From the IMG/VR virus record IMGVR_UViG_3300029267_004179, positions 1 to 64,000 of that record: a stretch of DNA of 64,000 nucleotides; one strand, written 5' to 3'. The DNA is from a virus. The notes under the pieces were generated by a model that was given only the letters and a program-made list of their open reading frames with translations, was not told the origin of the DNA and did no database searches. Within the stretch, counting starts at the first letter, position 1. The number at the start of each line of letters is the position of its first letter. Below are positions 2,622 to 56,705 of the stretch, in pieces. The position numbers were made by a program, and so were the translations under genes.

Positions 2622-2708
2622 ACTACAATGGTAGTTTATATTGAAACAATTAGTGATAAGGGATGGCAAAGGGCATCATTGCCGGAAAATAAACAGGAGA
2701 AGGTTGAT

Positions 2709-2975
2709 ATGAAAATTTATACTTATTATAGAGGAAAGGTCCATTCTCTTGAAGTTAAGGAAACAGAAAAGTTATTTATTGCCAACAAAGGAGCTGCCGC
2801 TTTTAGCTTTATTAGGAGATTTAGAAAGGATGGCTGTTGCTTAACACCTGTTGCTGCGGTGAATAAAGAAATTGGATTTCTTAAAGCGAGAATATCAGTT
2901 AAAAGAAGACATCTCATTGATGATGAGAAACGGCTTGATAAACTTCTTCACCTACTTGTCGAGACGTATAGTTGA
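2709..2975 (+). CDS. Hypothetical protein
   Basis: An 88-residue protein. The frame is open from an ATG at 2628, but AGGAGAAGG at 2695 sits just before the ATG at 2709, which is therefore the likelier start. It contains a beta-type N-terminus (MKIYTYYRGKVHSLEVKE) and a basic C-terminal helix (KRRHLIDDEKRLDKLLHLL). Function unknown. Confidence 0.65.
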   Translation: MKIYTYYRGKVHSLEVKETEKLFIANKGAAAFSFIRRFRKDGCCLTPVAAVNKEIGFLKARISVKRRHLIDDEKRLDKLLHLLVETYS

Positions 2976-3196
2976 TACGGTCTGAAAAAGATGTTCCATG
3001 GTGGAGGTGCAAACATCTACTTTGTGGTGTAAAGAGTTATGACGCTTGCCATCTTGGTTTCTTTCCACCTATACCTGCCGTGGTCAATGTAGAAGTTCCT
3101 TCCAGGTCAAAAATAAAAAAGCCGGAATGTTTTTATGGTGAGAATAAAATTTGTGATTGCTATACATCTATAGACAAGAGGACAAACAATGAATAA
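2972..3196 (+). CDS. Small Cys-rich protein (TTG start)
   Basis: A 74-residue frame beginning with TTG that overlaps the previous stop codon. Six Cys are spread along it (WWRCKHLLC, DACH, ECFYG, ICDCY), suggesting a metal-bound or compact fold. It overlaps the following gene by 8 bases. Function unknown. Confidence 0.6.
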   Translation: MIRSEKDVPWWRCKHLLCGVKSYDACHLGFFPPIPAVVNVEVPSRSKIKKPECFYGENKICDCYTSIDKRTNNE

Positions 3197-3605
3197 CTTT
3201 AAGGATGTAAAAAGAATGGAGAATAAGGCAAAGGTAATTTATTTTGCGGACGCTGGCGGTGACTTGGAAGAAGAAAAAGAAACAATAGAAAAACTACTCA
3301 AACGGAATGAAATCTTCTTCGATATAAAAGCTGTTGACCTACCACCTTTTGATGAGAAGTTTGATGTCTTGTTTTTTGATTGGGGTGGTATTTCTGTCGG
3401 TAATAGTATGCTTGAGCATTTCTGTCGTTATATCATAAATCATGCCGAAGACCATCCGGGAAATGTATATGTTATGACTTCTCAAATGACCGAAGCAGCA
3501 ATGATAGATGCCCTGTCTGTGATTCCAGATCGTCCTGAAAATATTTATTTGGACATCGGGCATGGCGATACATTGATGGCATTAAAGGTTTTTTCAAACC
3601 GGTAG
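3189..3605 (+). CDS. Hypothetical alpha/beta protein
   Basis: A 138-residue protein that looks like a small Rossmann-type fold: strand AKVIYFADAGGD, helix, strand FDVLFFDWGG, helix MLEHFCRYIINH, strand NVYVMTSQ, helix, strand ENIYLDIG. No catalytic motif is recognised. GAGGACAA precedes the ATG. Function unknown. Confidence 0.75.
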   Translation: MNNFKDVKRMENKAKVIYFADAGGDLEEEKETIEKLLKRNEIFFDIKAVDLPPFDEKFDVLFFDWGGISVGNSMLEHFCRYIINHAEDHPGNVYVMTSQMTEAAMIDALSVIPDRPENIYLDIGHGDTLMALKVFSNR

Positions 3606-3619
3606 TTGGAGGCATAAAA

Positions 3620-4132
3620 ATGTTAGTTAATTGTCCATTTTGTGAGAATAAAATAGTGGTTTGGATGCACAATGAAGATGTGAAATTTTTTCCTCACGTT
3701 ATACTATATGAAATCCGTTGTACTTGTGATTTGTTTTGTAATGCCGATTCGGTGGAAAGGTTGTGGAAGCAAGAAAACACCATTGTTTGTTCTAGCTATA
3801 GTCTTGAAGAAGCCATAAAAAGATGGAACAAATGGGCAGTGAAAACAAAGTCATATTTAAAAAAGAAAGAAGTGGAGGACAAAATGGTAATCCGTGGAAA
3901 CAAAATGTCAGAACAGGAGGGCAAGATGGCGGTACAGGAAAAAGTAAGGAAAACAGTTGGAATCAAGGTAGTTTACGCCATTCCGAGTGAGATGACTGCT
4001 CATGAACAAGCTGAATTAGAAGAAAAAATCAATACTGCCATGATAACAATTGGTGCAAAGTGGTATGCCCAAGGGGTCGAGTTGGCAACTATGGAAAGGG
4101 ATATAGCTTTCGATGTCCCTTATGGTAGTTGA
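3620..4132 (+). CDS. Protein with Lar-like zinc-finger N-terminus
   Basis: A 170-residue protein. Residues 1-75 have the layout of the Lar (restriction alleviation) family: NCPFCENK at the start, a second Cys pair in IRCTCDLFC, and the closing helix EEAIKRWNKWA. Classical Lar modulates host type I restriction, but most phage Lar-like proteins are uncharacterised. The remaining part (about 95-170) is a separate alpha/beta segment (VGIKVVYAIPSEMTAHEQAELEE). In-frame ATGs at 3884, 3905 and 3926, the first and third after GGAGG/GGAGGG stretches, could give a separate C-terminal product. Confidence 0.65.
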   Translation: MLVNCPFCENKIVVWMHNEDVKFFPHVILYEIRCTCDLFCNADSVERLWKQENTIVCSSYSLEEAIKRWNKWAVKTKSYLKKKEVEDKMVIRGNKMSEQEGKMAVQEKVRKTVGIKVVYAIPSEMTAHEQAELEEKINTAMITIGAKWYAQGVELATMERDIAFDVPYGS

Positions 4133-4145
4133 AGGAGGTATTTTC

Positions 4146-4454
4146 ATGATAGTAAACGGCCGCAATTATGGTCTATGGGGGCAGTTCGTTGAACGCAAAG
4201 AAGAGTTCATTGGTGGTACTTTGGAAGAAACGGACGGAAGGGAAACAATTACAACAAAGATAACCGGCATCGAGTTGAAGCCGAATGGCGATGATTCTGC
4301 TTTTTTTCAAATATGTGGGGAGGATTTTAGCTGTGGTTTTGACGCTCAATGTGGAGGGGTAGATGGGGCACATTCAGGGGAAGGATGGATTGCTTTTGCC
4401 TCTGTATATGGTCTATCCTTCAAGATAAAACAGAAAGGGGATGAAGATGGCTGA
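4146..4454 (+). CDS. Hypothetical beta-rich protein
   Basis: A 102-residue protein. AAGGAGGT at 4132-4139 fixes the ATG at 4146 rather than an upstream in-frame start at 4113 inside the previous gene. It is almost all beta (NYGLWGQFVERKEEFIGG, TITTKITGIELKPNGDDSAFFQI) with three Cys in the GEDFSCGFDAQCGG loop. It overlaps the next gene. Function unknown. Confidence 0.75.
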   Translation: MIVNGRNYGLWGQFVERKEEFIGGTLEETDGRETITTKITGIELKPNGDDSAFFQICGEDFSCGFDAQCGGVDGAHSGEGWIAFASVYGLSFKIKQKGDEDG

Positions 4455-4935
4455 AAAAGAAAATGAGAAAAAAGCAGTAGATCAAGCAATCCAGTTTAAT
4501 GATATGGCTGCGAAGTGTGAAACCTGCAAAGAATTGAAGCCTTATGGTAGTTATATTACTATCGGCAGTGATTGTATAAACCCTGATGTTAAGCCACATA
4601 TAGGATCATTTCATTGTCTTGACTGTTGCTTAAAATGCTATAGAAAAGGCTCTTGCTTTAAAAATATAGATACTCCTTGGCATGTTCTGGCTCCCTTGTG
4701 CCGTGTTGCCAAGTCGTTTTATTCTGTTGAAATGGAAGTCATGTCTGAAGTCGTAAATTCTTTTACTTCCACTATAGAATATAGTTCCAAGCAAATATCT
4801 ATAGTTCTTAGTTCTGAAGATACCACGTTGCCTGAAAGTAAAGTTAAAATAAATAGTGAAATTAACTTTATTCATAGGCTTTCACAAGTGTTTGTTGCCC
4901 TGAAGAGAAGATTGATATCCAAGAAAGAAGGTTAA
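4447..4935 (+). CDS. Cys-rich hypothetical protein
   Basis: A 162-residue protein from the ATG at 4447; a second ATG at 4441 touches the GGGG ribosome site and is less likely. The N-terminal half holds CETCKEL and a Cys cluster CLDCCLKCYRKGSC (about 55-70), consistent with two zinc sites. The C-terminal half is amphipathic and acidic. Function unknown. Confidence 0.7.
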   Translation: MAEKENEKKAVDQAIQFNDMAAKCETCKELKPYGSYITIGSDCINPDVKPHIGSFHCLDCCLKCYRKGSCFKNIDTPWHVLAPLCRVAKSFYSVEMEVMSEVVNSFTSTIEYSSKQISIVLSSEDTTLPESKVKINSEINFIHRLSQVFVALKRRLISKKEG

Positions 4936-4936
4936 T

Positions 4937-5173
4937 ATGAAGCTATATTTACTATATGGCTATGAACCGAAGACAAGGCTTATCGAAACCGTTAACGGGG
5001 AAGTTCCATTTATCGATTGGATTCAGGAGGAGATGAGAAGAATCAAAACGGCAAACCCAAACAGGGTAGTTATGATTGATGTGCAAGGGACCAATGCGGC
5101 ATTATTTGTTAATGATACCGGTTTTCGTAGGGTGGGGCAAACATTTCAATTTAAAGCTTCGATTGATGTTTAA
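4937..5173 (+). CDS. Hypothetical protein
   Basis: A 78-residue protein starting one base after the previous stop. It resembles a small alpha/beta domain: strand KLYLLYGY, helix FIDWIQEEMRRIKTA, strand NRVVMIDVQG, strand NAALFVND. Function unknown. Confidence 0.7.
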   Translation: MKLYLLYGYEPKTRLIETVNGEVPFIDWIQEEMRRIKTANPNRVVMIDVQGTNAALFVNDTGFRRVGQTFQFKASIDV

Positions 5174-5196
5174 TTGATAAAAAAAGGGGGGCAGCA

Positions 5197-5427
5197 ATGG
5201 CAACTAATTTTGCTATACATCATATAAAAGCAAAGATAAAGTTTAATACAGTATATAAATGTGCATCATGTAGTAATAAGGCTATAGGCAGGACTATGTT
5301 TGTTGAGTTTGACGGCTCATCTACAACTGAGCTGAAGGATATGGTAGATAGTATTCACCAGTCAGCTAATTATATGCCTGTTGGGTGGTCATTTAATGGT
5401 AAGTTTAATTGTGGGTGTGGTAGGTAA
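5197..5427 (+). CDS. Small zinc-ribbon-like protein
   Basis: A 76-residue protein with GGGGGG ahead of the ATG. A Cys pair near the N-terminus (YKCASCSNK) and one at the very end (FNCGCGR) bracket a beta/alpha core, the usual layout of a four-Cys zinc ribbon. Function unknown. Confidence 0.7.
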   Translation: MATNFAIHHIKAKIKFNTVYKCASCSNKAIGRTMFVEFDGSSTTELKDMVDSIHQSANYMPVGWSFNGKFNCGCGR

Positions 5428-5470
5428 ATGAAGATAGCATTTTCATTGCTTGCTTGTTTAAGGTGATGTT

Positions 5471-5680
5471 ATGACAGATGAAAAGGTGATTAAAGCTGCA
5501 GTCAATGTACTTATGAAGCCTATTTTAGACTTGCTACAAGATGATCCGCATATGTGGAGTATGCGGCCATGTAGTACCTGTAGGGCAATATCGTCTATGG
5601 TAGGAAAACCGTTTGGCTGTTATTTTTATGCTCAGAAAATGCGTGAACAAAAATGCAAAAAGGAGGATAGCAATGGATGA
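5471..5680 (+). CDS. Conserved-looking small Cys protein
   Basis: A 69-residue protein. The core DDPHMWSMRPCSTCRAIS, then GKPFGCYFYA, resembles a small protein type seen in other phages, with one CxxC pair and two further Cys (GCYF, EQKC) that could complete a zinc site. The last 8 bases overlap the next gene. Function unknown. Confidence 0.7.
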   Translation: MTDEKVIKAAVNVLMKPILDLLQDDPHMWSMRPCSTCRAISSMVGKPFGCYFYAQKMREQKCKKEDSNG

Positions 5681-7592
5681 TATTAAACTTCAGGCAAATA
5701 TGCAACGTGGTTCAAGAATGGGGGCTGATTTAAGAGAAAAATTCCTTGATGAAGCTATAGGTTTAAGAGAAAAATTCCTTGATGAGGCTGCAAAACAAAG
5801 TATAAAAACCACATCTACCGGTAGACCAAAAATCAATAACTTTGATAGGCTTCTTGACTGGGAGAACTTCGATAATCATATGTGTTCCTACATTTCCGGG
5901 CCGCAAGAAAAGTATGGAACATCTTTGAAGTTTAACGATCTATGTCACTATACCGGATTAAGGGTTATGACTTGGAATATCTTGAAGTATGCCCTTCGTC
6001 TGTGGAATATGGCCGGGAAGGTTAATGACTTTGAGAAGATCGCCCATTATGCACAAATGGCATGGACATTGAAAGAACAACAAAAAAGGAAACCACCATT
6101 TTTTTCTGAAGATACAGAAGGGGATTATGTAGTTGTCAGAGAAGAACCCATTAGCTTTTCAAATGTAACTGTAGATCAACTTCGTGAAGATAGTGATGAA
6201 TTCTTGAAAGTGAAGAAGGTTCTGGATAACTATCCTAAACTTAACAATCGAATTGGTGGACTGCTTGTTCATGTGGCTGTGGAGCAGTTGTGTGAGATTG
6301 CTTCTATTCCTCATAATAATACTTTCCCAGAGATTATTGATCGGATAGGCGGCATCCTTTCCACCGTCGATATGATCCATGCCGGGATGGATTTGCCTGA
6401 TGCCGTACAAGGGCTTGTTGATGAAAATAAGAAGCTGAAACAAAAGATTGAAAGACTACAAGCACTTGAAGCTGAAGCACTTGAAGCTGAACTTGAAAAC
6501 GCCTCTATGCTTAAAAAGAAAATCAAACACTTAACCAAAACAAATAAAGACCTATGCAAAAAGAATAGGGGTTTGGCCGGGCAGTTAAGGAAGGTAGAAG
6601 AGAAGGTGGAAAAGCTGAAGTCCTTGGCTGATAAAATGGATGTTGGATGTAGTGGACGATTTATAGAAAATTCGGTAGGCTCTGTGACTTCTCAAGAGCT
6701 GTCCCATGTTGTATTCGTTGGTGGTCCTGATGATGGGTATAGGATGGAACTGGAAGCAGCCAAATCATTAATCGATGCTGAAATCAAAACGGGTATTCCG
6801 ATTCGGAAAGATCCAAATTCTCTAAAATACTATCTTGTGAACCTTCAGGTTTACTATCCTATGAATGTTTACTATCCTATGAATGAGCATTCATTCAATA
6901 TGTTAGGGCTTGTTCTTTGGTATGCCGTCCCGAAAGAAATTTTTGATGTGATAAACAAATCAGACAACAAACAAATTGCACAATTCTTAATTTCCTTTTA
7001 TGAAGGATATAGAAGACTACCTGCAAACACAAATAAAATCCCTGAAGAGACTGACACCTTGAAGAAAAGGGTAGAAGAGTTGACAGTAAGGGTCAAAGAG
7101 TCGGAAAGTCAAAAGGCGGCACTTGCTATCAATGGCGATATGAAGGATAAAACAATTAAAAAACTTAAAGAATATTTCCTTTTTGATCCTCTTGATGATA
7201 CAGATGTTTTTTTTAAGAATGAAGGTGTATTCACGAACTACCAAAATTCGCCTGATGTTCTCTTTATCGGTGGGGTGCGTGATGGTGAAAGACTATCTGC
7301 TGAAGAAATAAAAAAAGAAATTTGCAAGGAGGGCTTTATAAGTCATGGTGATTTAATTACTTCCGACGATGGTTCTAAGTATGTTATCGTTAAAATTTCT
7401 TTCAACCAAAAACCCCTTGAATTTGGCGTATCCGCAAATGAAGTACTTAATCATACTTTTTTCTTTGCTATCCCTGAAGATAGCCATAAAAGCGTTAGTA
7501 TATCAAATTTCGTTTTAGAGAATCCAGGCGCAAGATTAAAGCTGTTTCTTGATAAACTTCAGCAATGGTATCGGGTGACTGATGATGGTTGA
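5673..7592 (+). CDS. Large multidomain hypothetical with duplicated VGGxxDG domains
   Basis: A 639-residue protein. AGGAGGAT at 5661 selects the ATG at 5673 over an in-frame start at 5613 in the previous gene. Order: repeat LREKFLDEA twice (about 20-40); a helical domain (about 50-240, including LRVMTWNILKYALRLW); coiled coil (about 250-340); a beta domain starting VVFVGGPDDGYR (about 345); a second coiled coil (about 455-500); and a second related beta domain starting VLFIGGVRDGER (about 530). The two beta domains look like a duplication of a small GGPxDG-type phage domain and both end in FYAxP-like strands. No enzymatic motif is seen. Three short in-frame tandem repeats are present. Confidence 0.75.
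   Translation: MDDIKLQANMQRGSRMGADLREKFLDEAIGLREKFLDEAAKQSIKTTSTGRPKINNFDRLLDWENFDNHMCSYISGPQEKYGTSLKFNDLCHYTGLRVMTWNILKYALRLWNMAGKVNDFEKIAHYAQMAWTLKEQQKRKPPFFSEDTEGDYVVVREEPISFSNVTVDQLREDSDEFLKVKKVLDNYPKLNNRIGGLLVHVAVEQLCEIASIPHNNTFPEIIDRIGGILSTVDMIHAGMDLPDAVQGLVDENKKLKQKIERLQALEAEALEAELENASMLKKKIKHLTKTNKDLCKKNRGLAGQLRKVEEKVEKLKSLADKMDVGCSGRFIENSVGSVTSQELSHVVFVGGPDDGYRMELEAAKSLIDAEIKTGIPIRKDPNSLKYYLVNLQVYYPMNVYYPMNEHSFNMLGLVLWYAVPKEIFDVINKSDNKQIAQFLISFYEGYRRLPANTNKIPEETDTLKKRVEELTVRVKESESQKAALAINGDMKDKTIKKLKEYFLFDPLDDTDVFFKNEGVFTNYQNSPDVLFIGGVRDGERLSAEEIKKEICKEGFISHGDLITSDDGSKYVIVKISFNQKPLEFGVSANEVLNHTFFFAIPEDSHKSVSISNFVLENPGARLKLFLDKLQQWYRVTDDG
5729..5788 (+). repeat. 33-nt-period direct repeat inside a gene
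   Basis: A 27-base unit encoding LREKFLDEA occurs at 5729-5755 and again at 5762-5788 with a single A/G change. The period of 33 nt keeps the frame. Confidence 0.9.
6462..6491 (+). repeat. 15-nt tandem repeat, two copies
   Basis: GCACTTGAAGCTGAA at 6462-6476 and 6477-6491, identical and in frame, encoding ALEAE-ALEAE in a coiled coil. Confidence 0.95.
6849..6884 (+). repeat. 18-nt tandem repeat, two copies
   Basis: GTTTACTATCCTATGAAT at 6849-6866 and 6867-6884, identical and in frame, encoding VYYPMN twice. Confidence 0.95.
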
Positions 7593-14018: not shown

Positions 14019-14293
14019 TTAATATTTATGAGGGCAACAAGTGGAAAGGTGAAGTTAAAGTAAGTACTCTTAGGTTCATTTATGGTGTTGCTTCTGAGAT
14101 GGGCGATGCAGGCGCCTCTGGCATGAGGGGCATAATTGACTTTTTAAATCTTGGCTATACCGTTGATCCACAGTTAGTTGCAGAAATTATCATGTCTATC
14201 AAATTCCCAGAAGTAGATGGCATTGACAAGAGTATTTCTGATTTTTCAAATTTACTTAGTAAGTCCAAAAGACCAGTAACCCTTGCTGTATAA
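14015..14293 (+). CDS. Hypothetical protein
   Basis: A 92-residue protein coupled by ATGA to the preceding gene. Beta start (MINIYEGNKWKGEVKV) followed by helices, with a Gly-rich turn (GDAGASGMRG). Lies between the MuF and scaffold genes. Function unknown. Confidence 0.65.
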   Translation: MINIYEGNKWKGEVKVSTLRFIYGVASEMGDAGASGMRGIIDFLNLGYTVDPQLVAEIIMSIKFPEVDGIDKSISDFSNLLSKSKRPVTLAV

Positions 14294-14339
14294 AATATTA
14301 CTTTACTTTTATAATATTTGATTTTATAATAGCACCATT

Positions 14340-14495
14340 ATGAAATTGATTTTACAGAAACTTGAAGCTTTGCTTAATATTTTGAAGAGGGACAACTTTT
14401 CAGGGAAAGCAGTTTTTAGGTTTGAACTGATAATTAATAGTGGAGGTTTGAGAGATGTAAAAGTTTTTCAAATAAATGAAAAACAGATTAGTTGA
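14340..14495 (+). CDS. Weak 51-codon frame
   Basis: MKLILQKLEALLNILKRDNF and 31 more residues, in the 368-bp gap before the scaffold gene. No ribosome site is evident. It could be real but may be chance. Confidence 0.25.
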   Translation: MKLILQKLEALLNILKRDNFSGKAVFRFELIINSGGLRDVKVFQINEKQIS

Positions 14496-14508
14496 CGGAT
14501 TTCTTTTT

Positions 14509-14539
14509 AATCCCTTGCCTTGAGGGTAGGTAAGGATTT
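14509..14539 (+). promoter_or_regulatory. Leader hairpin upstream of the terminator
   Basis: AATCCCTTGCCT pairs with AGGTAAGGATT across a GAGGGT-type loop, allowing one bulge and a G-U pair. It lies directly before the terminator hairpin at 14549. Confidence 0.5.
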
Positions 14540-14548
14540 ATTTTAAAG

Positions 14549-14590
14549 CCCGTGTTGAGTCGCAAAGCGTCTTGGTGCGGGTTTTTTATT
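14549..14590 (+). terminator. Intrinsic terminator before the scaffold gene
   Basis: An 11-pair stem with several G-U pairs (CCCGTGTTGAG with CTTGGTGCGGG) is topped by CGC-AAA-GCG and followed by TTTTTTATT. It would separate the MuF transcript from the scaffold/coat transcript, or act as an attenuator for it. Confidence 0.75.
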
Positions 14591-14629
14591 GGTAGTTATT
14601 GGCCGGATGGTCATAAATTTAATGGTAGT

Positions 14630-14646
14630 TGCGGATGGTGTCCGCA
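14630..14646 (+). promoter_or_regulatory. Hairpin just before the scaffold ribosome site
   Basis: TGCGGA (14630-14635) pairs perfectly with TCCGCA (14641-14646). The GGAAGGAG ribosome site follows directly. Confidence 0.5.
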
Positions 14647-14661
14647 GGAAGGAGTCAAGTC

Positions 14662-15495
14662 ATGCCGTGGAAAGTAGATGAGAATGGACAAATTGAGGTA
14701 AAAGATGGCAATCCAGTATTCATTCATGGTGACAAGAGTGAAGCACCTTTTGATGGAGATGGCACAGTCAAGACGATTGCTGCTTTGAAGATGGAAAGCC
14801 AAACACGAAGGGAGAAGCTTCAAAGCTTTAAGAAAATAATGGAGCCTTTGAAGGATGTTGGTGTTAATATTGACACTGGTGAAGGCCTTGGTGACTATAT
14901 TAAATCTTCTGCTGATGCTGTTGAGACAGTTAAGAACTTTAATGATTCAGACCTTGTAAAGGCAGATGAGGTTGAAAAGATCAAGAAGTCACAAAAAGAT
15001 GCCTATGAAAAGAAGCTTGCTGACCAGGACAAAGCATACAAATCGGTCATTGAGAGAAAGGAAACCAGGATCAATAAACTTGACAAAACCCTGCGGGATA
15101 GACTTATTCGAAGTGAGTTTGAAAACAGTACTTTCATTCGGAAGAAAACAGTGCTGTTGCCTGAGTTTGCTTACAGCAACTTTGCAAAGAACTTTGAATT
15201 TGAGGAAAAAGATGGAATCCTTGTGCCTTTTGCTGTTGATGGTAAAGGGGATAGGATTTATTCTTTGAAGAATCCAGGTCAACTGGCAACCCCAGAAGAA
15301 GCAATTGAGATTTTGATCAATAGCCATCCTAATAAAGAAGGTTTGCTCAGAGGAAGTGATGTTGCTGGCGGTGGAGGGCAACCAAGTTTTGATGCTGGCG
15401 GCAGAACAACTATCCCGAAAGGTGACCCTGTTGCGTTTGGCGCAAATATTGAGGATATTGCTTCAGGCAAGAAAAGAGTAGCTGTAGATCAATAA
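14662..15495 (+). CDS. Capsid scaffolding protein (DUF6651-like)
   Basis: A 277-residue protein. GGAAGGAG selects ATG at 14662 (MPWKVDENGQIEVKDGNPVF); an upstream in-frame ATG at 14629 lies in the leader hairpin. The start followed by PFDGDGTVKTIAAL is typical of a phage protein family found just before coat genes. A long central coiled coil (about 55-160) and a Gly-rich, flexible C-terminus fit a scaffold that guides coat assembly and leaves or is cleaved. Position immediately before the coat gene supports this. Confidence 0.75.
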   Translation: MPWKVDENGQIEVKDGNPVFIHGDKSEAPFDGDGTVKTIAALKMESQTRREKLQSFKKIMEPLKDVGVNIDTGEGLGDYIKSSADAVETVKNFNDSDLVKADEVEKIKKSQKDAYEKKLADQDKAYKSVIERKETRINKLDKTLRDRLIRSEFENSTFIRKKTVLLPEFAYSNFAKNFEFEEKDGILVPFAVDGKGDRIYSLKNPGQLATPEEAIEILINSHPNKEGLLRGSDVAGGGGQPSFDAGGRTTIPKGDPVAFGANIEDIASGKKRVAVDQ

Positions 15496-15501
15496 ATTAA
15501 A

Positions 15502-15548
15502 GGCAGTCCGACTACCTCCATTTGGTTCCGGTAGTTGACAGGATTGCC
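15502..15548 (+). promoter_or_regulatory. Two-level stem-loop in the coat gene leader
   Basis: Outer stem GGCAGTCC with GGATTGCC (one G-U pair); inner stem ACTACC with GGTAGT around a 13-base loop. It ends 29 bases before the coat ATG, ahead of GAAGGAGG. Confidence 0.6.
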
Positions 15549-53941: not shown

Positions 53942-54298
53942 ATGCCTACCAAAAAAGACGATCCTTTCTTAAAGTTGGCTACCGCTGTTGAAAAATTAAC
54001 AGGTAATCATCTTTGTGCTGGCGATAACTGCCCCAACTTCATAGGAGTAAAAGCATCTCAAAAAACATTTCAAGTGATTGTAATTTCTTTGATGGGAGTA
54101 TTATGTATAATGGCAGGGGCAGTTATGCTTCAGCTTGCCGCATTTAAGGATGATTACAAAAATGATTATGCTAAGGTACAAGATGTTATAACAAGGGTAG
54201 GTGTGGTAGAAAAAGACATAGAAACGCTTGAGATAAAAACAGACAATATCAATGCTCGTGTCTATAACCTTCAAATAAAAAATGCAAGGACTCCATAA
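53942..54298 (+). CDS. Single-pass membrane protein with coiled coil
   Basis: A 118-residue protein. One membrane segment (VIVISLMGVLCIMAGAVML, about 45-65) separates an N-terminal part carrying CAGDNCP from a C-terminal coiled coil (YAKVQDVITRVGVVEKDIE). The layout suits a holin-partner or spanin-like protein. It stands directly before the PAS gene. Function unknown. Confidence 0.65.
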   Translation: MPTKKDDPFLKLATAVEKLTGNHLCAGDNCPNFIGVKASQKTFQVIVISLMGVLCIMAGAVMLQLAAFKDDYKNDYAKVQDVITRVGVVEKDIETLEIKTDNINARVYNLQIKNARTP

Positions 54299-54299
54299 A

Positions 54300-55334
54300 A
54301 TGTCATTCTTATCGAATCTTATTTCAGGTATCACCGGCAAGAAGCTTGAAGAATCGGAACGACTTGTGGATGAAGCAAAATTAAGGATTCAATCGGCTTC
54401 TCAGGAATTACTTGAAGCAGCTTCAGAAGCAAAAGAACAAAGAGACCAGCTTGCTTTAAGTGAAAAAAAGTATAGGAATTTATTTCACAATTCACCGGTA
54501 GGTATGTTCAGGTTAAGTAACGATGGAACAAAATTCCTTGAAGTCAACAATAGGTCTGTTGAAATTCTTGGCTATGATAGTGTTGAAGACTTGATGAATG
54601 TTCATCCGATTACTATTTGTGCGTCCGCTGACGTTTTTCATCGCATCCAATCAATACTTGATAACAAAGGAAGGGTTATCAAATATATCTTTTGTGGTCG
54701 GAAAAAGAATGGAGAAATTGTCACATTGGAATCATCCATGAAGGTCTACCCACACGAAGATTACACTGAAGGGACTGTGATTGATGTCACTGAAAGGGTG
54801 AGAATAGCAAAGCTGAAGCAATATGCCTATGAACTTGCCAATCAAATGGTTGATCTTGCGTGGTATAAGGATAGTAATTTGAAGTTTTTGTTTATTAATG
54901 CTTCCGGTTTAAAAGTCCTTTTCGGCCCGGATATGAAGCTTTCTGATGTAGAAGGATTAAGCGATATAGATGTTGTCAGAAAACATTACAAGGGAAATTA
55001 TGATTCAAATCTTGTCGGAGAAGTCTGTCAAGCTACCGATAAGAAAACTATCGAAGCACGGAAACCATCCCGATTTATTGAAATTGCTAAAAATTTGGCA
55101 GGAGTAGAAGTCTGGCTTGATGTTTTTAAGGTGCCTTGTTTTGCTACTGATGGAAAATTTGTATCAATAGTTGGAAATGCAAGGCTTATACATGAGAATA
55201 TGCGGAGTGAATGTTCTTCTTTTTTAAAAGAGAAGATGGAAGAAGGCAAGGTTGATTTGGTTGCTGGGAAATTTTATCACCTAAAAGAATTTGAATATGC
55301 CGAACTAAGGGAAAGCATAATCGATAAATCTTGA
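54300..55334 (+). CDS. Double PAS-domain protein
   Basis: A 344-residue protein; ATG 54300 follows AAGGACTCC and is preferred over an in-frame ATG at 54282 inside the previous gene. Residues 1-55 are an amphipathic helix/coiled coil (LVDEAKLRIQSASQELLEAA). PAS 1, about 57-170: SEKKYRNLFHNSPVGMFRLS, FLEVNNRSVEILGYDSVEDL, KNGEIVTLESS, closing TEGTVIDVTERV. PAS 2, about 178-298: ANQMVDLAWYKDSNLKFLFI and SRFIEIAKNL to SIVGNARLI. There is no histidine kinase, GGDEF or other output domain. PAS domains sense ligands, redox or light, or mediate dimerisation. Confidence 0.85.
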   Translation: MSFLSNLISGITGKKLEESERLVDEAKLRIQSASQELLEAASEAKEQRDQLALSEKKYRNLFHNSPVGMFRLSNDGTKFLEVNNRSVEILGYDSVEDLMNVHPITICASADVFHRIQSILDNKGRVIKYIFCGRKKNGEIVTLESSMKVYPHEDYTEGTVIDVTERVRIAKLKQYAYELANQMVDLAWYKDSNLKFLFINASGLKVLFGPDMKLSDVEGLSDIDVVRKHYKGNYDSNLVGEVCQATDKKTIEARKPSRFIEIAKNLAGVEVWLDVFKVPCFATDGKFVSIVGNARLIHENMRSECSSFLKEKMEEGKVDLVAGKFYHLKEFEYAELRESIIDKS

Positions 55335-55346
55335 AAAGAATCATCA

Positions 55347-55422
55347 TCATTTAAGATTCTATCAGCATAAAATAAAAAACTAATATAAGGGTATAGGGTA
55401 AAAATTTTATAGGCCTTAAAAA
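55347..55422 (+). promoter_or_regulatory. Recurrent intergenic element, copy D
   Basis: TCATTTAAGATTCTA start as in copies A and B, core ACTAATATAAGGGTATAGGG as in copy C, then TAAAAATTTTATAGGCC and TTAAAAAGG. It ends 16 bases before the endolysin ATG, dividing the PAS gene from the endolysin/holin pair. Confidence 0.8.
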
Positions 55423-55438
55423 GGAAATAAGGAAGCCG

Positions 55439-55867
55439 ATGGGAATCTTATTTAAACATTTTTCAGAAGTTCCTGAACGATTATGGAAATGGGATAATTT
55501 CAAACCGAATGAGTATTATCTTTTTTGCCCGTGTTGCGGGGAGTTCTACCTTGATTTTGAAAGTATGGATCGACTTCAAGCTGCAAGGGATAATATCGGT
55601 AGTCCTATTCGAATTAACAGTGGGCATCGATGTCCTATTCATAATGCAAGGGTAGGTGGCGCTCCATTATCTCAGCACAAAAAAATTGCTTTTGATATTT
55701 CTGTTTTTAATAGCGACAAAAAGAAAGTCCTTGAAGGATTAAAAAAAGCAGGTTTTACCACATACGGGTTCTATAAAACTTTTGTTCATACTGATATTCG
55801 TAAGGGTAGAATGTGGTATGGAAAAGGAGGTAAAGAGGCATGGATGGGATTAATTGGGCAGACGTGA
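55439..55867 (+). CDS. M15-family peptidoglycan peptidase (endolysin)
   Basis: A 142-residue protein. Peptidase M15 (D-Ala-D-Ala carboxypeptidase-like) features: FCPCCGEFYLDF, INSGHRCPIHNARVGG, the zinc motif SQHKKIAFDI (H80, D86) and FVHTDIR (H117, D119). Compared with the usual S-x-H-x-x-G-x-A-x-D, the Gly is Ile here. Would cut peptide cross-links in murein. No signal peptide, so release would need the holin that overlaps it. Confidence 0.85.
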   Translation: MGILFKHFSEVPERLWKWDNFKPNEYYLFCPCCGEFYLDFESMDRLQAARDNIGSPIRINSGHRCPIHNARVGGAPLSQHKKIAFDISVFNSDKKKVLEGLKKAGFTTYGFYKTFVHTDIRKGRMWYGKGGKEAWMGLIGQT

Positions 55868-56370
55868 TAGGGGTAGGGGCATCTGCTGCCACCGGCGGCA
55901 TTTTTGGACTCGTTGGTAGTCTTGTCGGCGCTGTTGGCAAATATTTCCAAAAGAAACAGGAACAGTCGTTTCTTCGGGAAAAATGGGATTATGAAACAAA
56001 GCTTCTTGAATTGAACATGAAAAAAGGAATACAAGAGTTTGATCATGAAATGGCATTAACCGCTCAACAAGGATCATGGTCGGGGCTTGAAGCATCGTAT
56101 AAGCATGATGCATCTATAGGGCCAGTTCACAAGTGGGTAAATGATATAGTAAAGTTGTTTAGGCCGGTCTTAACTATCGCACTTTGGATTTTATGCGGAA
56201 TAATCTTTTGGTGGTTTGGGCAGAAGGAGTTTTCTGAAACCCTTTCATCAGAAGATATTTTTATTTTAAAAAGATATATGATCCATACCACCTTCTTTGC
56301 TGCTGGTTCTGCTGCAATGTGGTGGTTCGGAGAACGGTCTTTAACTCCACCTGATATGAAACACAAATAG
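55840..56370 (+). CDS. GTA-type 3TM holin
   Basis: A 176-residue protein overlapping the endolysin by 28 bases. An N-terminal hydrophobic segment (VIGVGASAATGGIFGLVGSL), a charged middle helix, then two membrane spans (LTIALWILCGIIFWWFG; HTTFFAAGSAAMWWFG) and the ending MWWFGERSLTPPDMKHK. The closing WWFGxRS pattern is typical of the 3TM holin family described in gene-transfer-agent release. It would permit endolysin exit. Confidence 0.8.
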   Translation: MDGINWADVIGVGASAATGGIFGLVGSLVGAVGKYFQKKQEQSFLREKWDYETKLLELNMKKGIQEFDHEMALTAQQGSWSGLEASYKHDASIGPVHKWVNDIVKLFRPVLTIALWILCGIIFWWFGQKEFSETLSSEDIFILKRYMIHTTFFAAGSAAMWWFGERSLTPPDMKHK

Positions 56371-56378
56371 GTGATGCT

Positions 56379-56705
56379 ATGTTTAAAAAATACAAAGAAT
56401 GGTCGATAGTAAAGAAGATTACCGCTATCTGTGGGTTGATAACTGCCTTGGCAGGGGTCGTGACTCTTCTTTTTACTATCGATCATCGATTTGCTAAGAG
56501 TAGTGAGCTGAAGAAAGTCAAAACAAGGCTTGAGCATAAGATTGAAAGTGATCATTATCAGTGGTTGGAGCAAAGATCATATACTTTAAAGGATAGATAT
56601 ATTAATAAGCCTATGCCGCAGTCTGTGAAAGAAGAAATACGGAAAATTGAAGATGATTTGAAGTGGTTAAGGGAGAAGATTAAAAGCCTGATGAAAGATG
56701 ATTAA
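56379..56705 (+). CDS. Spanin-like single-pass protein
   Basis: A 108-residue protein after GTGATG. One N-terminal membrane segment (ICGLITALAGVVTLLFTI, about 17-34) and a long periplasm-facing coiled coil (SSELKKVKTRLEHKIESD). This is the layout of an i-spanin, but no embedded lipoprotein partner is seen. Its stop codon faces that of the minus-strand gene ending at 56702. Confidence 0.6.
   Translation: MFKKYKEWSIVKKITAICGLITALAGVVTLLFTIDHRFAKSSELKKVKTRLEHKIESDHYQWLEQRSYTLKDRYINKPMPQSVKEEIRKIEDDLKWLREKIKSLMKDD

What the first reader, a model, noticed from the sequence alone, without database searches (positions are those of the whole stretch)
54300..55334. Phage-encoded double PAS protein inside the lysis region
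Two PAS domains and a coiled coil without any output domain lie between a membrane coiled-coil protein and the endolysin/holin pair, separated from the latter by a recurrent regulatory element. PAS sensors are rare in phages. It may sense host state and tune lysis, or interfere with host PAS signalling proteins by mixed dimers.
Basis: partly seen in the sequence, partly recalled or inferred. Interest (0 to 1): 0.75.

Follow-up and report, generated by a model that had tools for sequence, protein, structure and literature searches.

The report
Phage double-PAS protein beside lysis genes
A virus of bacteria carries a signal-sensing (PAS) protein with no output part next to the genes that burst the host cell, and similar or fold-like sensor proteins sit beside lysis genes in several unrelated phages, which suggests, without proving it, that some phages use a sensor to time host lysis.

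Summary
ORF 54300-55334 (344 aa) is an N-terminal coiled coil, two PAS domains (PF13188 2.9e-8; PF08448 8.5e-5), a short helix-hairpin tail and no output domain. It starts one base after a membrane coiled-coil gene and is followed by a repeat element and an M15 endolysin. The host phage is a 104-kb tailed phage. No sequence relative was found in 50,697 phage records, and related viral records lack it. Location-blind searches gave two leads. A profile scan of viral contigs found a 286-kb viral contig whose membrane-anchored PAS protein resembles PAS2, including a shared insertion, and overlaps a holin-like gene near a GH108 endolysin. A fold search with the predicted structure found unannotated membrane-anchored PAS-like proteins of Cellulophaga phages, which lie beside endolysins or holin-like genes. 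A profile built largely from bacterial relatives of PAS2 matches VqmA and phage VqmA, whose ligand triggers lysis, but the VqmA output domain is absent here. Best reading: an accessory PAS sensor/adaptor of the lysis module acting through the coiled-coil membrane protein. Ligand, partner and effect are untested. The likeness to the Cellulophaga proteins rests on fold alone, and a chance cargo position remains possible.

The parts
53942..54298 (+). 118-aa single-TM protein (TM 45-63) with a coiled-coil-like C-terminal half; ends 1 nt before ATG 54300 of the PAS gene
   Evidence: coiled coil read from the sequence; no Pfam hit
54300..55334 (+). double-PAS protein, 344 aa (alternative start ATG 54282)
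54300..54488 (+). N-terminal helix / coiled coil (residues 1-63)
   Evidence: AF2 helix 2-63; heptad register 0.61 vs 0.30 hydrophobic
54468..54800 (+). PAS1
   Evidence: PF13188 2.9e-8, PF13426 6e-7; PF13188 4.6e-10 in the genome search
54840..55190 (+). PAS2, 'WYKD' PAS_4 subgroup that includes VqmA; putative pocket residues C243, V275, K277
55191..55331 (+). C-terminal tail: helix 299-314, beta hairpin 318-328
   Evidence: AF2; similarity of the tail alone to L167 is not significant
55347..55431 (+). genome-wide repeat element; 22-bp core identical in 9 copies in 104 kb
55439..55867 (+). M15 peptidase endolysin
   Evidence: Pfam 5.3e-19, phrog_17373, phrog_894
55840..56370 (+). TM protein that travels with the endolysin (phrog_6637), putative holin
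56379..56705 (+). small single-TM protein (TM 14-32), coiled-coil-like tail; weak match to 'hol-like chemotaxis' phrog_8369

Best explanation
The gene encodes a cytoplasmic, probably dimeric PAS sensor/adaptor belonging to the phage's lysis module. Most likely mechanism: the coiled coil docks the two PAS domains on the membrane coiled-coil protein encoded just upstream (holin or antiholin). A small molecule or redox/energy state sensed by PAS2 (VqmA-type pocket) or PAS1 then changes that contact and shifts the time of holin triggering. In relatives the same idea would appear as one polypeptide: TM anchor plus PAS. Shown here: domain make-up, lack of an output domain, gene order, and the same position of a PAS or PAS-like protein in several other phages. 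Inferred: membrane docking, ligand, direction and size of the effect on lysis.
For: Two PAS domains over curated cut-offs and a PAS-type model. A 1-nt gap to the TM coiled-coil gene suggests translational coupling. L167, found by a scan blind to location, has TM segments plus a PAS like PAS2 (E=2e-9, 25% identity). It shares an 8-residue insertion absent from the bacterial PAS domains of this type that were aligned. It overlaps a holin-like gene (phrog_199, 5e-5) and lies near a GH108 endolysin. The fold search, also blind to location, hit phi19:1 R9ZZL0 (1.2e-4) and phi18:3 S0A2B2 (5.8e-3), assigned by length and organism to gp108 and gp090. These have a hydrophobic segment, a helix and a PAS-like domain. 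They sit next to a holin-like gene (gp107) or two genes from the endolysin. A homolog in phi38:2 overlaps its M15 endolysin inside a small-TM / PAS / endolysin / spanin-like cassette. A profile with bacterial relatives matches VqmA and VqmA_Phage among the best solved structures, and VqmA_Phage controls lysis (PMC8284805).
Against: Related viral records lack any PAS hit, so the gene is accessory. Sequence comparison does not join the Cellulophaga family to the window protein; only the fold does, from a model with a shallow alignment. The window protein has no TM of its own, and nothing shows that it touches the membrane protein. The repeat element could mark a transcription boundary between the PAS gene and the endolysin. 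The space between tail and lysis genes also collects cargo genes.
Confidence: 0.42

Rival explanations
1. Cargo (moron) gene: a host-derived PAS-PAS fragment kept in the permissive gap between tail and lysis genes; its function is unrelated to lysis, e.g. modulation of host metabolism or motility.
For: Absent from related records; nearest bacterial matches are ordinary PAS domains of histidine kinases and cyclases at about 24-33% identity; a repeat element separates it from the endolysin.
Against: PAS or PAS-like proteins found by searches blind to location also lie beside lysis genes; codon usage is fully phage-like, so the gene is not a recent import.
Confidence: 0.27
2. Decoy or dominant-negative partner: the coiled coil plus PAS pair forms mixed dimers with a host sensor kinase or diguanylate cyclase and silences it.
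For: Coiled coil running into a PAS domain and no output domain; bacterial relatives are PAS-kinase and PAS-GGDEF proteins.
Against: Low identity to any known host protein; TM-anchored relatives next to holins are not explained; the host is unknown.
Confidence: 0.17
3. Virion or assembly protein: PAS domains used only as dimerisation modules in a tail-associated or scaffolding protein.
For: Follows the tail genes on the same strand.
Against: Neighbouring Cellulophaga structural genes are marked as found by proteomics, but the PAS-like genes are not; no structural PHROG matches.
Confidence: 0.07
4. Regulator of late gene expression working together with the phage-encoded sigma factor rather than on the holin.
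For: The phage encodes a sigma-70 region 2 protein and nine copies of an intergenic element, one between the PAS gene and the endolysin.
Against: No DNA-binding domain in the PAS protein; the element is genome-wide.
Confidence: 0.07

Closest known systems
VqmA / VqmA_Phage (vibriophage VP882), PDB 6ugl, 6kju, 6ide, 7dwm
   Same: PAS2 falls in the same PAS_4 subgroup; the pocket lysine (K-x-P motif) is kept; both are phage-borne PAS proteins linked to lysis (PMC8284805)
   Different: No HTH/LuxR DNA-binding domain; two PAS domains; the two pocket phenylalanines of VqmA are Cys and Val here; PAS2 alone matches VqmA_Phage only weakly (E=0.002); the profile match leans on bacterial rows, and the window + L167 profile alone finds no PDB match
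L167 PAS protein (IMGVR_UViG_3300004151_000006, 286 kb)
   Same: PAS2-like domain with the same 8-residue insertion; overlaps a holin-like gene, endolysin nearby
   Different: One PAS domain, with TM segments in the same chain
phrog_10199 / phrog_31932, Cellulophaga phages phi18:3, phi38:2, Ingeline, phi19:1, Nekkels
   Same: PAS-like fold after a hydrophobic segment and helix; beside holin-like or endolysin genes
   Different: Similarity to the window protein by fold only; single PAS-like domain; functions unannotated
PAS-containing sensor histidine kinases and diguanylate cyclases, bacterial and phage
   Same: PAS sequence type; coiled coil running into PAS
   Different: The catalytic output domain is missing here
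T4 RI/T antiholin-holin lysis inhibition (own knowledge)
   Same: A sensor-like protein would delay or trigger holin action
   Different: No sequence relation tested or seen; a different sensor fold

Membership tests
PAS domain superfamily | PAS profile match over curated cut-off | tested here: met
   (PF13188, PF13426, PF08448)
PAS domain superfamily | PAS fold | tested here: met
   AF2 model and Foldseek to PAS structures; the model rests on a shallow alignment and PAS1 is of modest confidence
LOV (flavin) PAS | conserved Cys motif NCRFLQ | tested here: not met
   no match in the sequence
Heme PAS (FixL/DosP type) | heme-ligating His at the right position | tested here: inconclusive
   His 102 and 114 lie in PAS1; no reliable alignment to FixL or DosP was made
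VqmA quorum receptor | HTH DNA-binding domain after PAS | tested here: not met
   no HTH; chain ends about 45 aa after PAS2
VqmA quorum receptor | DPO-contacting residues F67, F99, K101 (positions from own knowledge) | tested here: not met
   only the Lys is kept; aligned residues here are C243, V275, K277
Sensor histidine kinase / GGDEF protein | HisKA-HATPase or GGDEF/EAL output domain | tested here: not met
Holin/antiholin | membrane segment in the PAS protein itself | tested here: not met
   no TM; maximum hydropathy 1.03
Holin/antiholin | effect on lysis timing | not testable with these tools
   needs a phage-host pair
Lysis-associated PAS group proposed here | PAS or PAS-like protein without output domain beside holin-like or endolysin genes | tested here: met
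   window, L167 and Cellulophaga phages phi18:3, phi38:2/phiSM and phi19:1/Nekkels; the Ingeline locus shows the same small-TM neighbour but no annotated endolysin

The most novel reading that the evidence does not exclude
PAS sensors without output domains are a recurrent, previously undescribed part of phage lysis cassettes. They gate the holin directly, as one chain (TM-PAS) or as a split pair (TM coiled coil + coiled coil-PAS-PAS), in response to a small molecule or redox state, so that lysis time depends on host condition or density without transcription.
Probability: 0.27. Interest if true: 0.82.

Novelty: new variant of a known kind. Interest (0 to 1): 0.6.

Why it matters
How phages decide when to lyse is known in a few models (holin clocks, T4 lysis inhibition, quorum-sensing phages acting through transcription). 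A sensor domain built into the lysis cassette would be a direct, post-translational way to couple lysis to host state. The Cellulophaga phages are cultured isolates with host strains, so the idea can be tested now. It also gives a candidate function to two PHROG families of unknown function.

Tried and rejected
Direct relatives of the full protein: none in phages, viral contigs or bacterial genomes. Relatives of the upstream TM protein: none. Single-sequence AlphaFold2 model: too poor to use (pLDDT 40). C-terminal tail as a shared motif with L167: not significant on its own (496 of 3000 shuffles as good), so not claimed. VqmA membership: rejected because the output domain and two of three pocket residues are missing. 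LOV photoreceptor: rejected for lack of the Cys motif. The repeat element as a lysis-specific switch: rejected, 9 copies genome-wide and three of them in inverted orientation with no gene in that direction just downstream. Literature: no paper found that links PAS domains with holins or endolysins in a lysis cassette.

Full report
Observation. The window is bases 1-64000 of a 104,019-base IMG/VR virus record with tailed-phage structural genes: MuF-like head protein, major head protein phrog_283, tape measure. The ORF at 54282/54300-55334 is intact, and ATG 54300 has a good ribosome-binding site. Pfam finds PAS1 and PAS2 over curated cut-offs and nothing after them. AlphaFold2, given a 5-row alignment, predicts a long N-terminal helix, two PAS-type folds and a helix-hairpin tail (mean pLDDT 70.9, pTM 0.50). 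Codon usage is that of the phage.

Surroundings. Upstream, one base away, is a 118-aa single-TM protein whose C-terminal half reads as coiled coil. Downstream are the repeat element, an M15 endolysin, a conserved TM protein that accompanies endolysins in other viral contigs, and a small single-TM protein. The repeat element has an identical 22-bp core in nine copies over 104 kb on both strands. It is therefore a genome-wide element; a link with the phage's own sigma-70 region 2 protein is possible but untested.

Relatives by sequence. No close relative exists in 50,697 phage records, IMG/VR or one genome per 84,980 species, within the limits of those scans. Plasmid PAS proteins match at about 23-33% identity and are parts of kinases, cyclases or EAL proteins. 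Records related by head protein or by the TM/endolysin genes have no PAS hit (positive control). An alignment-based scan of viral contigs, blind to gene context, returned one relative: L167, in a 286-kb contig. Its 300-aa protein has TM segments and then a PAS domain like PAS2 (E=2e-9), including an 8-residue insertion missing from the aligned bacterial PAS domains of this type. Its gene overlaps a holin-like gene (phrog_199) and a GH108 endolysin gene lies about 2 kb away on the other strand.

Relatives by fold. Foldseek against predicted viral structures gave phage and giant-virus histidine kinases first, then short PAS-only proteins. Two come from cultured Cellulophaga phages, and their lengths match single genes: R9ZZL0 (240 aa) fits phi19:1 gp108 and S0A2B2 (172 aa) fits phi18:3 gp090. 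This assignment is by organism and length. Both genes are annotated hypothetical. gp108 overlaps gp107, a small TM protein with weak holin similarity, and a lysozyme gene is 1.5 kb downstream. gp090 lies between a small TM gene and gp091-endolysin. A gp090 homolog in phi38:2 and phiSM overlaps the M15 endolysin, with a small TM protein before and spanin-like genes after. Ingeline and Nekkels carry relatives in similar positions. The two PHROG families are related to each other (E=4e-6). Sequence profiles do not connect them to the window protein, so shared ancestry is not claimed, only fold and position.

How it may work. A PAS pair on a coiled coil without output domain must act by contact. 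The nearest encoded partner is the TM coiled-coil protein one base upstream; in relatives the TM anchor and PAS are one chain. The simplest reading is a sensor that shifts holin triggering. PAS2 belongs to the subgroup that includes VqmA, the receptor for the autoinducer DPO, and VqmA_Phage, which starts lysis in VP882 (PMC8284805). That match depends on a profile made mostly of bacterial PAS domains; the window and L167 rows alone find no PDB relative. The pocket lysine is kept while the two phenylalanines are Cys and Val, so DPO itself is not expected. The identity of the pocket residues in VqmA is from my own knowledge.

Weight of the gene-order argument. The window was chosen by a reader who saw the location, so it does not count as independent evidence. 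L167 and the Cellulophaga genes were found without regard to location and lie beside lysis genes. That is a handful of cases, some of them related to each other, and the tail-lysis gap is a common site for cargo. I put the lysis-control reading at 0.42 and the cargo reading at 0.27.

Verdict. Real feature, ordinary domains, unusual setting that recurs. New variant of a known kind: PAS proteins in phages and control of lysis are each known, but an output-less PAS as a recurrent member of lysis cassettes was not found in the literature searched (open-access papers only).

Noticed in passing
window 36544, 46610, 55392 (+); 18946, 63405 (-); L001:4783 (+), 12238 (-); L002:6195 (+); L003:4928 (-): Nine copies of an intergenic element with an identical 22-bp core TATAGGGTAAAAATTTTATAGG in 104 kb, often 14-35 nt before a start codon but three times inverted. 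Function unknown; not found in any other fetched locus.
   Followed up: partly
L001:10876-12147: Phage-encoded sigma-70 region 2 protein (Pfam 5e-7) with a lysine-rich tail; a repeat element copy lies just after it.
   Followed up: partly
L002:11-3235: DNA polymerase III alpha subunit whose C-terminus is a uracil-DNA glycosylase superfamily domain (PF03167, 1e-25): a polymerase-UDG fusion.
   Followed up: no
L001:15292-16344: Radical SAM enzyme (Pfam 1.5e-12) followed by an uncharacterised gene; possible base or small-molecule modification.
   Followed up: no
L170 (LR756501.1, 735-kb phage) 4007-6220: What reads as a complete PAS histidine kinase with a receiver domain, encoded by a huge phage.
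   Followed up: no
L004: An endolysin relative lies near two reverse transcriptase-like ORFs (2652-3827 and 14058-15548) and a recombinase-like ORF in a GC-rich contig; possibly a provirus with retroelements.
   Followed up: no
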